Shown here: positions 6,064 to 22,807 of the stretch, piece by piece
How positions within the stretch are numbered: the first letter of the stretch is position 1
How the letters are laid out: every line of letters begins with the position of its first letter
Source: a virus
Length of the DNA: 22,902 nucleotides
Reading direction: 5' to 3' (one strand)
Virus record (IMG/VR): IMGVR_UViG_3300009553_000423
Coordinates: 1-22,902 of that record
Position numbers and translations under genes: made by a program
Notes under the pieces: model-generated
What the model saw: only the letters and a program-made list of their open reading frames with translations
The model's database searches: none
Told to the model about the DNA's origin: nothing

Positions 6064-6384
6064 CTACAATTGATTGGCTTGCTTTAGCGGTCTGACGATC
6101 TTCTGCGGTGGGCCGGCGCGCTGAGGGTGACGGAGGGAATACGTTTCTATGTACGTCATGCGCACCAGCTGGTGCCGAATGATAATTTTCTGGACGCATT
6201 GCCATGTGACGTTCATCATGGCAGCGACCTCCTTGGGCGCCATCCCGGCCCGTAAATGCCGGATTACGGATGCGACCGTGTCTTTGGTTGTCTCTCGCAG
6301 GCGACTTCCCCCCTCCAGGGTACTTCCCGAGTGCAAACCATTATGCCCGCAAAGCGCAAATTTGGCAACTATTCGGCTGGACAT
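6064..6384 (-). CDS. Helix-turn-helix DNA-binding regulator (candidate)
   Basis: 106 residues if started at ATG 6384. Residues about 33-75 (KDTVASVIRHLRAGMAPKEVAAMMNVTWQCVQKIIIRHQL) form a homeodomain-like helix-turn-helix. It is at the head of the left arm, diverges from the RNA and recombinase unit, and carries one of the best copies of the 17-bp dyad (6396-6412) just upstream of its start. That arrangement suggests an autoregulated repressor or activator, which is inference. The start is uncertain: GGAG is only 2 nt from ATG 6384 and the first 30 residues look less protein-like. No family name was recognised. Confidence 0.6.
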   Translation of the reverse strand: MSSRIVAKFALCGHNGLHSGSTLEGGSRLRETTKDTVASVIRHLRAGMAPKEVAAMMNVTWQCVQKIIIRHQLVRMTYIETYSLRHPQRAGPPQKIVRPLKQANQL

Positions 6385-6412: not shown

Positions 6413-6556
6413 GTCCTTTGCGGGCCTCTGCGCCGGGTGAAACCGGCGCTGCGCACCCACGGGTCCAGCGGCCGGTGATGACCACATGGTCCCCGCAGTT
6501 CAATAGGGGCTTTGAAATCCGGCAGCCCAGCGAAGGATGCCGTTCTTGTCTCCCCA
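6413..6556. other. Gene-free stretch with one GC-rich hairpin
   Basis: No convincing gene on either strand. A perfect 7-bp hairpin GCGCCGG/CCGGCGC with loop GTGAAA lies at 6430-6449. It lacks a T tract on either side, so it is not an obvious terminator. It may separate the divergent regulator and RNA promoters. Confidence 0.4.
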
Positions 6557-6585
6557 TTGCGAGAGGGTCATTCCCTTTCTATAGA
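6557..6585 (+). promoter_or_regulatory. Sigma-70-type promoter for the RNA gene
   Basis: TTGCGA at 6557-6562, a 17-bp spacer, then TATAGA at 6580-6585. This would start transcription near 6592, exactly where the structured, ORF-free segment begins. Confidence 0.6.
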
Positions 6586-6591
6586 GACTGT

Positions 6592-6815
6592 GCCTACAAA
6601 GTGGGCTAGTGTAATGGCACCCTAAGTGCGTAAAGAGATGATGAGTCATGAGAAAGCCGGGAGACTAATGTCCCACGAGTTGTGGCTGAGCATGCTGGCT
6701 ACCGCGGTTCGTGGCGATCGCACAGACTGTGTTGAGGGTACGCATTACAGCCGCAAGGCATAGTGCGGAGAGTAGATACCGAGGCTTGACGCCCCGGAGA
6801 GACGGGGATCTTTTT
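6592..6815 (+). ncRNA. Structured free-standing non-coding RNA
   Basis: About 220 nt between a good promoter and a rho-independent terminator. No frame of 60 or more codons covers 6610-6839 on either strand. Local helices visible by eye include GCAC/GTGC (6617-6629), AGCC/GGCT enclosing GGGA/TCCC (6655-6687), an outer CATG/CATG (6647-6694), CCGCG/CGTGG (6702-6714), CACA/TGTG (6721-6731) and CCGCA/TGCGG (6751-6768). GTGGG (6601-6605) can also pair with CCCAC (6672-6676), giving an alternative or tertiary pairing. It precedes a serine recombinase on the same strand. The class was not recognised: an orphan HEARO/omega-RNA-like element, a decayed intron piece or a new RNA family are all possible. 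Confidence 0.6.
6792..6815 (+). terminator. Terminator of the RNA gene
   Basis: CCCCG (6792-6796) pairs with CGGGG (6803-6807) around the loop GAGAGA, followed by ATCTTTTT to 6815. It ends the RNA 56 nt before the recombinase start, so the recombinase needs readthrough or its own promoter. Confidence 0.75.
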
Positions 6816-6832
6816 AGCATCACGACCAATTC

Positions 6833-6844
6833 GGTGACGTCACC
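6833..6844. promoter_or_regulatory. Perfect 12-bp palindrome before recombinase
   Basis: GGTGACGTCACC lies between the terminator and the recombinase start at 6872. Its half-sites resemble the GGTGNC/GNCACC arms of the dyad family but without the CATNATG core, so it may bind a different or related protein. It could equally be a recombinase binding half-site pair. Confidence 0.4.
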
Positions 6845-6871
6845 ACAATGGTTCGGGAGTACGAGGGCTTA

Positions 6872-7504
6872 ATGGAAAAACAAAAGCGAGTTGCCATTTA
6901 TGCCCGAGTTTCCACGGCTGACCAAACATCCGATAACCAGCTGCTCGATCTGCGGAAATACTGCGCGTCTCGTGGATGGACGGTTGTCGATGAATTTGTT
7001 GACAATGCCATATCGGGCTCGAAGAAGGACCGCCCGCGTCTTCGTTCACTTATGGAGTTTGCTTGGCCGGGAGTCGTGGACTGCGTGCTGGTTTGGCGGT
7101 TCGACCGATTCGCCCGCAGCCTGTCACATCTGGTGCAGGCGCTCGATACGTTCAGGGAGCGCGGTGTTGATTTTGCCTCCCACCAAGAACGAATTGATAC
7201 GTCCACCTCACAGGGCAAGCTCATGTTTGGGATCTTCGCTTCCTTTTCCGAATTCGAGCGCAACCTCATTCAAGAAAGAATTTACGCCGGACTGGCCCGC
7301 GCTCGCTCCCAAGGTAAGCGATTCGGAGCGCCGCCCCTTCCTGACATTAAGCGCCAGGAGATTCTTGCGCTCCGCGGAACCGCCTCCATCCGATCCATCG
7401 CAGCTCGAGTTGGCGTTAGCAAATCGTTAGTCCAAAAAGTGCTGTCCACGAAAGGGGGTCCAATTGTGGCTTCTACCATCGACGGAACCCCTGTGGCTTT
7501 CTGA
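6872..7504 (+). CDS. Serine recombinase, resolvase/invertase type
   Basis: 210 residues from ATG 6872, which has GAGGG 5 nt upstream; an ATG at 6848 has no ribosome binding site. The catalytic serine is S14 in YARVSTADQ. The arginine-rich active-site helix is WRFDRFARS (about 75-83), and the E-helix segment GKLMFGIFASFSEFERNLIQER follows. The C-terminus has a short Hin/resolvase-like helix-turn-helix (ASIRSIAARVGVSKSLVQKV). At this size it is a small resolvase or DNA invertase, not a large phage integrase. Typical roles are dimer resolution, inversion of a switch segment or transposition of a small element. No paired crossover sites were found. It is on the opposite strand to the structural genes and follows the RNA gene. 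Confidence 0.92.
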   Translation: MEKQKRVAIYARVSTADQTSDNQLLDLRKYCASRGWTVVDEFVDNAISGSKKDRPRLRSLMEFAWPGVVDCVLVWRFDRFARSLSHLVQALDTFRERGVDFASHQERIDTSTSQGKLMFGIFASFSEFERNLIQERIYAGLARARSQGKRFGAPPLPDIKRQEILALRGTASIRSIAARVGVSKSLVQKVLSTKGGPIVASTIDGTPVAF

Positions 7505-9313: not shown

Positions 9314-9709
9314 CTAAATCGGCGTAGTCTTTATAGATTCGCAATCCGAGATCGTCACTTCCACCCGCGGGTTCGCCTTGTCCACTTGGTAGGAGTCGGT
9401 CAGCTCCACAACCCATTTCTGGGAATCGTTTTTTATCCGGTCCATTTTCACCAAGGTGTCCAGCAGCACCTTCGACCCCGCCCGGATGTTGTCTAAGTCC
9501 CTCCGGCGATCCTGCTCCACCCAATGGATGTGGATCCGCACCGGGCCTTTGAATTTCGGAACGCGGCTGTAGAGGATCCACTGCGCGATGTGCCGCTTGA
9601 TCGATTTCCGCTTCCTGGCTGCGTAGAATCGATAGTATGGATTGCGCTGGTCCCTCTCCGTAGTGTTCAGGCTCTCCAGCCGGCCCGCCATGCTGAACGT
9701 GAACGTCAT
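9314..9709 (-). CDS. RusA-like Holliday junction resolvase
   Basis: 131 residues. The centre carries the RusA signature: VRIHIHWVEQDRRRDLDN with the acidic pair of DLDN at about residues 71-73, a Lys at about 80 and LVKMDRIKNDSQKW giving the third acid, followed by a beta strand VEVTI. RusA enzymes are small homodimeric nucleases that resolve four-way junctions and are common late in phage replication modules. The N-terminus is longer and more basic than E. coli RusA (KRKSIKRH). It starts next to the stop of the preceding coiled-coil gene. Another open frame across the same bases is a shadow. Confidence 0.85.
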   Translation of the reverse strand: MTFTFSMAGRLESLNTTERDQRNPYYRFYAARKRKSIKRHIAQWILYSRVPKFKGPVRIHIHWVEQDRRRDLDNIRAGSKVLLDTLVKMDRIKNDSQKWVVELTDSYQVDKANPRVEVTISDCESIKTTPI

Positions 9710-10417: not shown

Positions 10418-10452
10418 CCCGTAAATAAGTCCCCGCCCCCAGATCCCTTTCG

Positions 10453-14976: not shown

Positions 14977-15891
14977 CTATCCCGGCGCGCCCGCTGGCGT
15001 GCGGTCTAGATATCGGCGCTTGAGTGATGGGTATTTTTCGTCAGTGACGAGGTACTCCATCTGCCGCTGAAATTCCCGCATAGCGAATCGCTGGCCCACG
15101 GCGTGGTCATAGCTCTTGGTGCCCGGCGTGATGAATAGCTCCCAGCAGGCTTGGATTTCATGCAGGGCCCGGACGACGAAAATTTGCCGCAGCGCCTCCT
15201 GGTCGTCCGGTTCGCGCCATGCCTTCCGGGCCTTGCCGCGGGCCCAGCCGGGGACCATCGGTTCGACCCAGGCTTTGAATTCCCGCAGCGGATCTGGTGG
15301 GCCTTCTACCTGCGCCGTTTTTTCCCGCCGTGGGGATTCTTGCGCAAGCAAAGCCGTATCACTATTCACACGCGCGGTCTGGTGTTTAACGGCAGTATTA
15401 CTACCTGACGGCTTAGGCTGTAAGCCGTTCTCTCTAACATCTACATCTGGGTTAACCGGTGGGTTAACCGGGGGGTTAACCGGGGGGTTAACCGAATTTT
15501 TGATCTTCGGATTGCCGCCCATTTTCCCATTTGCTCTATTTATCAGCCTGATTGATTCGTCTCGCACCATGCGGCGGCAATAGAAAACCCCATCTTTTGT
15601 CTGCGAAACGACACCATACCGGAGTAATTCCAGCACCCATTTTGTCACCTTTTCGGCACCCTTTTTGCCGCTCATCTTTGGAATTCGCTGCGCGAGCTCC
15701 TTCATGTCGATGGGAATCCCGTTGGTGGCTAGGTGCCCGTAAGGTTCGCCGCGGTGCATGATGCCGAGCATTCGCATCCAGATGGCTTGGGCTTGGAGGG
15801 AACAGCGTGATAAGGCGAGGTCGTTGACGTAATCGTCGAAGCTAAATTTAACCCACGGCAGCTTGCTTGAATCCTGTTTGTCTGTGTCCAT
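14977..15891 (-). CDS. Phage replication initiator-like protein
   Basis: 304 residues. The N-terminus WVKFSFDDYVNDLALSRCSLQAQAIWMRMLGIMHRGEPYGHLATNG followed by ELAQRI and ELLRYGVVSQTKDGVFYCRRMVRD is a winged-helix domain typical of phage replisome organisers and DUF1376-like proteins. A flexible linker begins with VNPPVNPPVNPPVNP (about 134-149) encoded by tandem 12-bp repeats. The C-terminal helical domain (FKAWVEPMVPGW...RQMEYLVTDEKYPSLKRRY) may contact a helicase or loader. This is the lambda O-like arrangement: origin repeats inside the initiator gene. Preceded by GGGGGGGACTTAAAA before ATG 15891. Confidence 0.7.
   Translation of the reverse strand: MDTDKQDSSKLPWVKFSFDDYVNDLALSRCSLQAQAIWMRMLGIMHRGEPYGHLATNGIPIDMKELAQRIPKMSGKKGAEKVTKWVLELLRYGVVSQTKDGVFYCRRMVRDESIRLINRANGKMGGNPKIKNSVNPPVNPPVNPPVNPDVDVRENGLQPKPSGSNTAVKHQTARVNSDTALLAQESPRREKTAQVEGPPDPLREFKAWVEPMVPGWARGKARKAWREPDDQEALRQIFVVRALHEIQACWELFITPGTKSYDHAVGQRFAMREFQRQMEYLVTDEKYPSLKRRYLDRTPAGAPG
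15449..15494 (-). repeat. Tandem 12-bp iterons (candidate origin)
   Basis: Four head-to-tail copies of GGGTTAACCGGG (plus-strand reading; the last is truncated and the first ends GGT). Each contains the palindrome GGTTAACC. The adjacent 15495-15545 is richer in A and T (AATTTTTGATC, CATTTTCCCATTTG, CTATTTATC). They encode the NPPV repeat of the initiator. Confidence 0.6.
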
Positions 15892-15930
15892 TTTTAAGTC
15901 CCCCCCGCATTTTCCCGAATTGATACGGTA

Positions 15931-22771: not shown

Positions 22772-22807
22772 GGGATGCCAACCGGGGACTTAAGCCGATT
22801 GGCACCC
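22772..22807. repeat. Imperfect hairpin before the terminator
   Basis: GGGATGCCAACCGG pairs with CCGATTGGCACCC with one bulge, about 13 bp around a nine-base loop. It precedes the terminator as a second stem and may stabilise the message end. Confidence 0.5.

What the first reader, a model, noticed from the sequence alone, without database searches (positions are those of the whole stretch)
6557..6871. Free-standing structured RNA gene beside a serine recombinase
A promoter (TTGCGA-17-TATAGA), about 220 nt of helix-rich sequence with no ORF of 60 codons in any frame, and a stem-loop plus T tract form a complete RNA gene. It is divergent from the regulator gene and sits directly upstream of a small serine recombinase. 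GTGGG (6601-6605) can pair with CCCAC (6672-6676) over a nested hairpin, hinting at tertiary or alternative folding. I could not match it to a known class. Known precedents for RNA beside recombinases (HEARO/omega-RNA with IscB/TnpB, IS110 bridge RNA) involve other protein families, so a serine-recombinase partner would be new. The loop CTAATGTCCC is also partly complementary, with one bulge, to the GGGACTTA leader of right-arm genes, though such a match could be chance.
Basis: partly seen in the sequence, partly recalled or inferred. Interest (0 to 1): 0.75.

Follow-up and report, generated by a model that had tools for sequence, protein, structure and literature searches.

The report
Conserved phage RNA with shared hairpin
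A real, strongly conserved untranslated RNA sits in front of a phage recombinase gene; its 3' end is a small hairpin that unrelated phages (including P1 and many E. coli prophages) also carry, unannotated, in untranslated gaps, so it looks like a widespread phage RNA control element rather than a partner of the recombinase.

Summary
The RNA is real. A divergent phage (L004) has it at the same place: 95% identity in the core, 100% in the 3' block, only 26% in one hairpin whose pairs are kept by double changes. Third codon positions of the flanking genes are only 43-61% identical. A third, distant copy (L181, E about 8e-6) lies near a tRNA and before a ParB-like gene, not beside a recombinase. 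Two near-identical phages (L002, L003) keep a 99% identical recombinase but have a 94-aa ORF in place of the RNA. The proposed RNA-recombinase pairing therefore fails. The 'terminator' is a module: UGAC(A/G), a 5-bp stem and a GA..GA loop. Unrelated phages carry it in unannotated gaps: leaders behind repressors, tRNA/tmRNA clusters, before P1 ban. Stems covary. A model built without the window finds it at the window RNA's 3' end (29 bits; next background 9). A related branch hits 1506 of 5426 complete E. coli genomes. No Rfam family matched. Best guess: an untranslated leader RNA acting in cis on transcription, in the manner of HK022 put. That mechanism is inferred, not shown; a free sRNA remains possible.

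The parts
6557..6585 (+). promoter-like TTGCGA-17-TATAGA (weak, 8 of 12)
   Evidence: sequence; below the scan threshold; not clearly conserved in L004
6600..6623 (+). 5' stem-loop AGUGGGCUA...UGGCACCCU
   Evidence: W/L004 consensus structure, one consistent change
6624..6740 (+). conserved core: closing helix GUGCG (6626-6630) with CGCAC (6719-6723), hairpin AGUC/GACU (6644-6647 with 6663-6666) with invariant loop AUGAGAAAGCCGGGA, long hairpin 6670-6718
   Evidence: 95% identical to L004; closing helix and loop kept in L181, with a U-A to C-G change in the AGUC/GACU hairpin
6741..6767 (+). variable hairpin, 26% identical to L004 with pairs kept by three double changes and one single change
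6768..6790 (+). invariant 3' block GAGAGTAGATACCGAGGCTTGAC; its end AGGCTTGAC is also in L181
   Evidence: 100% identical in L004
6787..6807 (+).
   Evidence: model R2 built without the window: 29.2 bits at 6780-6819, next background 9.4; three double pair changes against L004
6811..6815 (+). TTTTT three bases after the hairpin; possible weak terminator
   Evidence: T tracts also in L004 and L181 but not in the hairpins of most other phages
6538..6814 (.). cassette absent from phages L002/L003, which carry a 94-aa ORF here between 91-99% identical flanks
6064..6384 (-). small HTH protein, divergent neighbour
6848..7504 (+). small serine recombinase (PF00239, PHROG DNA invertase), first gene downstream; not an obligate partner

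Best explanation
Positions 6600-6807 form a structured, untranslated RNA of about 210 nt at the head of the rightward operon that faces away from the regulator. A branched 5' domain is followed by a 3' module: UGAC(A/G), a 5-bp stem and a purine loop with GA at both ends. The same module caps different RNAs in many unrelated phages, mostly in long untranslated leaders behind repressor genes and in tRNA/tmRNA-containing gaps. I think the nascent RNA acts in cis on the elongating host RNA polymerase, keeping transcription going through untranslated or terminator-bearing stretches, as HK022 put RNA does with a different sequence. Shown: the RNA's conservation, structural covariation, the shared 3' module, its genomic positions and its independence of the recombinase. 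Inferred: transcription, cis action, polymerase as the target and antitermination as the outcome.
For: W and L004: core 95% identical against 43-61% at third codon positions of neighbouring genes, with double pair changes in three hairpins. L181 homologue found by model R1 and the three-sequence covariation control (9 double changes, 0/500 shuffles). UGAC hairpin: 23 copies, 15 cells with both sides changed, 10 extra pair types, 0/500 shuffles; independent hits at the 3' end of the window RNA and of L181 at 29 bits. Positions: between HTH gene and early operon in an E. coli prophage and BUCT708 with terminator-like hairpins in the same leader, mEp390 (77), JJ1886 repressor to yfdP (133), P1 trnI to ban (114), tRNA clusters (67, 80, 88). 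In a P1/mEp390/JJ1886 branch a second helix abuts UGAC directly, with one double change: two hairpins, as described for put (PMC9378689). Occurrence across very different hosts suggests a conserved host target.
Against: No transcript or function data. HK022 put lacks the motif. In W, L004 and L181 a T tract follows the hairpin, which fits a terminator. In RcCWillis and Alexa the next gene downstream is on the other strand. Near-identical phages L002/L003 do without the RNA. A helix abutting UGAC is only suggestive over all copies (combined p about 0.1). The full-length model R1 does not find the other phages, so only the 3' module is shared. L004's own hairpin scores weakly (18.5 bits, E 0.19) because of one inserted base.
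Confidence: 0.45

Rival explanations
1. A free-standing small RNA gene: transcribed from the weak promoter, ending at the hairpin plus T tract, acting in trans (as a regulator, or by binding a host protein).
For: Hairpin plus TTTTT here and T tracts after the hairpin in L004 and L181; the swap cassette 6538-6814 carries promoter-like site, RNA and T tract together; RcCWillis and Alexa copies do not read into a same-strand gene.
Against: Promoter weak and not clearly conserved; three bases separate stem and T tract; most copies of the hairpin in other phages have no T tract and lie in leaders of same-strand genes or tRNA clusters.
Confidence: 0.3
2. A processing or stability element of phage stable-RNA transcripts: the hairpin marks or protects the 5' side of tRNA/tmRNA or leader RNAs.
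For: Hairpin 4-31 nt before a tRNA in L373, L375, L378 and L363 and about 10 nt before a tmRNA-like sequence in CS01; L181 RNA 55 nt after a tRNA.
Against: The window, mEp390, the E. coli prophages and others have no tRNA nearby.
Confidence: 0.12
3. RNA partner or guide of the serine recombinase.
For: Adjacent in the window and L004.
Against: L002/L003 keep a 99% identical recombinase without the RNA anywhere in their records; L181 has it about 13 kb from its resolvase; relatives with the same gene order lack it.
Confidence: 0.02
4. A DNA element (resolution or crossover site of the recombinase), conserved as DNA.
For: Location beside the recombinase; a palindrome GGTGACGTCACC nearby at 6834-6845.
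Against: Conservation follows RNA pairs including G-U pairs that one strand only can form; homologue L181 is far from its resolvase; L002/L003 lack the element but keep the palindrome.
Confidence: 0.04

Closest known systems
HK022 putL/putR antiterminator RNAs (PMC9378689)
   Same: Phage RNA in untranslated leaders of early operons; hairpins close together; found in the segment between repressor and early genes; needs no obvious phage protein partner here.
   Different: put is about 70 nt with a different sequence; the UGAC hairpin is absent from HK022; window RNA is about 210 nt and has a T tract after it; no activity shown.
lambda nut/boxB and rrn boxA-type antitermination sites
   Same: 5-bp hairpin with purine-rich loop near the start of untranslated or early transcripts (from general knowledge).
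   Different: boxB varies with its phage's N protein, whereas UGAC and the GA..GA loop are nearly invariant across unrelated phages; no boxA motif was sought systematically.
HEARO/omega RNA and IS110 bridge RNA
   Same: Structured RNA beside a mobile-element enzyme.
   Different: No Rfam HEARO match, protein is a serine recombinase (PF00239), and the RNA is not linked to it.
Phage tRNA/tmRNA clusters
   Same: Several hairpin copies lie inside them; L181 and P1 RNAs follow a tRNA with anticodon CAT.
   Different: The window RNA is not a tRNA or tmRNA.

Membership tests
HK022 put antiterminator RNA | sequence similarity to known put sites | tested here: not met
   model R2 has no match in the HK022 genome and the motif is absent from the pL and pR segments
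HK022 put antiterminator RNA | located in the leader of an early operon next to the repressor region | tested here: met
   window (between HTH gene and recombinase operon), mEp390, E. coli prophages, BUCT708
HK022 put antiterminator RNA | two adjacent stem-loops | tested here: inconclusive
   clear in the P1/mEp390/JJ1886 branch; over all copies combined p about 0.1
HK022 put antiterminator RNA | suppresses pausing and termination without phage proteins | not testable with these tools
   needs a transcription assay
HEARO / omega RNA | match to the Rfam family and an IscB/TnpB-type nuclease partner | tested here: not met
   no Rfam match at gathering or E up to 10; neighbour is PF00239
IS110 bridge RNA | adjacent IS110 DEDD transposase | tested here: not met
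   neighbouring recombinase is Pfam Resolvase
tRNA / tmRNA | ARAGORN or Rfam match | tested here: not met
group I or II intron | Rfam match | tested here: not met
UGAC hairpin module defined here (model R2) | UGAC, 5-bp stem, GA..GA loop, found by a model that excludes the window | tested here: met
   29.2 bits at 6780-6819, E 0.0028 in 82 kb, next background hit 9.4 bits
   recombinase without RNA in L002, L003, L005, L033-L035; RNA away from the resolvase in L181

The most novel reading that the evidence does not exclude
Unrelated phages across several bacterial phyla share one small RNA module (UGAC plus a GA-looped hairpin) that caps different structured leader RNAs and acts directly on a conserved host machine, most likely RNA polymerase; the window RNA is one branch, and the P1/e14-like branch is carried unannotated by over a quarter of complete E. 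coli genomes.
Probability: 0.35. Interest if true: 0.88.

Novelty: new variant of a known kind. Interest (0 to 1): 0.7.

Why it matters
A recurring, unannotated RNA module in model phages such as P1 and in many E. coli prophages would be a new handle on how phages control transcription of their early and stable-RNA regions, and could be tested at once in laboratory strains. It also corrects a tempting false lead: the RNA is not a guide for the serine recombinase beside it.

Tried and rejected
Rfam at gathering and permissive thresholds: no family for the window RNA or the hairpin. Exact 15-17-mer scans: besides L004/L016 and the near-identical contig L013 only chance hits. The one genome-contig scan gave a chance hit in a protein gene. 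blastn of the window region against phages and plasmids: nothing. 80 terminase-related loci: no RNA. Coding hypothesis: rejected by the lack of synonymous changes. Folding energy: uninformative. Hammerhead- or snoRNA-like strings: the UGAUGA box of the window is not kept in L004. A shared upstream motif besides the hairpin: only marginal. Full-length model R1 on the other phages: no hit above background. JBD68 and BUCT551 hairpin hits lie in coding sequence and are probably chance. Literature search for the hairpin sequence and for put-like elements found only the HK022 structure paper; subscription journals are not held. Relatives could not be drawn for a virus record.

Full report
What is there. 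The window is an IMG/VR virus record. Terminase and portal genes run leftward; a small HTH protein (6064-6384, -) is divergent from a small serine recombinase (6848/6872-7504, +; PF00239). Between them lies 6600-6815, with no ORF of 60 codons inside it. Folding energy is not special, the promoter is weak (8 of 12 consensus positions) and terminator-like sites in the region are near chance. Judged by single-sequence features alone, the observation would not stand.

Homologues. A recombinase search gave eight phage contigs. L004, with 78% identical recombinase protein, has the RNA at the same place. Over 191 positions the core (25-141) is 95% identical, the 3' block (169-191) 100%, but one hairpin only 26%. 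Third codon positions in four neighbouring genes are 43-61% identical, so the core is under much stronger constraint than silent DNA. Differences within helices are compensated: three double changes in the variable hairpin, one (C-G to A-U) in the long hairpin, three in the terminal hairpin (CCCCG/CGGGG against GCGGG/CCCGC around the same GAGAGA loop). The only conserved small frame has two changes, both non-synonymous, and no synonymous one.

A third copy. A 14-mer scan followed by covariance model R1 found L181 with 33 bits over the full model, E about 8e-6 in 661 kb. It keeps the GUGCG/CGCAC helix, the loop AUGAGAAAGCCGGGA with a compensated closing pair, AGGCTTGAC, and a terminal hairpin with a GAGAGA loop. 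On the three-sequence alignment 9 pairs show double changes, with none of 500 shuffles as high, though that alignment is fitted to the model and the outer part of the last helix is doubtful for L181.

Not a recombinase partner. L002 and L003 are 91-99% identical to the window on both sides but carry a 94-aa ORF (PHROG 5459, unknown) exactly in place of 6538-6814, with a 99% identical recombinase and no RNA elsewhere in their records. L005/L006 and L033-L035 share the gene order without the RNA. In L181 the RNA lies between a tRNA and a ParB_N gene, about 13 kb from that phage's resolvase.

The 3' hairpin is a phage-wide module. A blastn hit of L181's last 26 nt in the cyanophage MinM2, then further searches, led to copies in Cronobacter, Klebsiella, Pseudomonas, Stenotrophomonas, Acinetobacter, Rhodobacter, Phaeobacter, Microcystis and uncultured marine phages and E. 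coli prophages, almost always where nothing is annotated. The motif is UGACA, a 5-bp stem and GARAGA or a slightly longer GA..GA loop. On 23 copies every pair forms, 15 cells have both sides changed and 10 extra pair types occur, with none of 500 shuffles as high. Ascertainment inflates the invariance of UGACA, since the first copies were found by similarity and the rest by a scan that required GAC and pairing. A model trained without the window sequences (R2) gives 29.2 bits at 6780-6819 and 29.4 bits in L181; the next unrelated hit is 9.4 bits. L004, with one inserted base, scores 18.5.

Where the module sits. In temperate phages it lies in 300-700-nt untranslated leaders behind the repressor or HTH gene (mEp390, Medea1 79, BUCT708 89, E. 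coli 23GD11002 92, JJ1886 133), sometimes two to four copies with a terminator-like hairpin between them. It lies in tRNA clusters, 4-31 nt before tRNAs in four phages and about 10 nt before a tmRNA-like sequence with the frame ANDDLMLMAA in CS01. In P1 it lies between trnI and ban. In RcCWillis and Alexa the next gene is on the other strand.

A better-known branch. P1, phiV10, SopranoGao, mEp390, BUCT708 and E. coli JJ1886 share a longer RNA of 150-190 nt. A hairpin is followed by the invariant GGTAGCCGGAATGTGCAAG, a 4-bp helix that directly abuts UGAC (with one double change) and the module. The mEp390 copy has matches in 1506 of 5426 complete E. coli genomes, without annotation in the rows shown. 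The window RNA has the same order (structured domain, then UGAC hairpin) and similar length but no detectable sequence similarity in the 5' domain.

Mechanism. The positions fit a cis-acting element of untranslated transcripts, and HK022 put is the closest working precedent: an approximately 70-nt two-hairpin RNA downstream of PL and PR that binds the elongating polymerase and suppresses both intrinsic and Rho-dependent termination without phage proteins (PMC9378689). HK022 itself has no such hairpin, so this is not a put site by sequence. The T tract after the hairpin in W, L004 and L181 leaves a trans-acting RNA possible. Shown: conservation, structure, module, positions, independence from the recombinase. 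Inferred: transcription, target and effect.

Limits. E-values from the in-session models are rough.

Noticed in passing
window 6538-6814 versus L002/L003 3642-3943: The RNA is exchanged as a neat cassette for a 94-aa ORF (weak PHROG 5459 match) between near-identical flanks: a small variable spot next to the recombinase.
   Followed up: partly
L382 1010-1201 (P1 71009-71200), L386 3869-4057, L385, L387, L366, L374: Unannotated 150-190-nt structured RNA shared by P1, phiV10, mEp390, SopranoGao, BUCT708 and an E. coli prophage; one copy's matches occur in 1506 of 5426 complete E. coli genomes.
   Followed up: partly
L364 2534-2725 (Cronobacter phage CS01): tmRNA-like gene with tag-like frame ANDDLMLMAA and a T-arm plus CCA end, just after the UGAC hairpin; only weak Rfam tmRNA matches.
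   Followed up: no
L378 2295-2676 (MT835676.1): ARAGORN predicts a phage tmRNA between tRNA-Pro and tRNA-Met, with the UGAC hairpin 6 nt before tRNA-Pro.
   Followed up: no
window 9494-9501, 10426-10433, 15895-15902 (-) and 22785-22792 (+): GGGACTTA occurs four times against 0.33 expected, one copy just before the start codon of the ORF at 15891; possible shared leader or ribosome-binding motif. Its proposed pairing with the RNA loop needs a bulge and the loop changes to CTAATGTCCA in L004.
   Followed up: partly
window 6834-6845: Perfect palindrome GGTGACGTCACC just before the recombinase, also in L002/L003 but not L004; candidate recombinase or regulator site.
   Followed up: no
L004 3890-3945: T-arm-like string GTGGGTTCGACTCC after the hairpin; possible tRNA remnant.
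   Followed up: no
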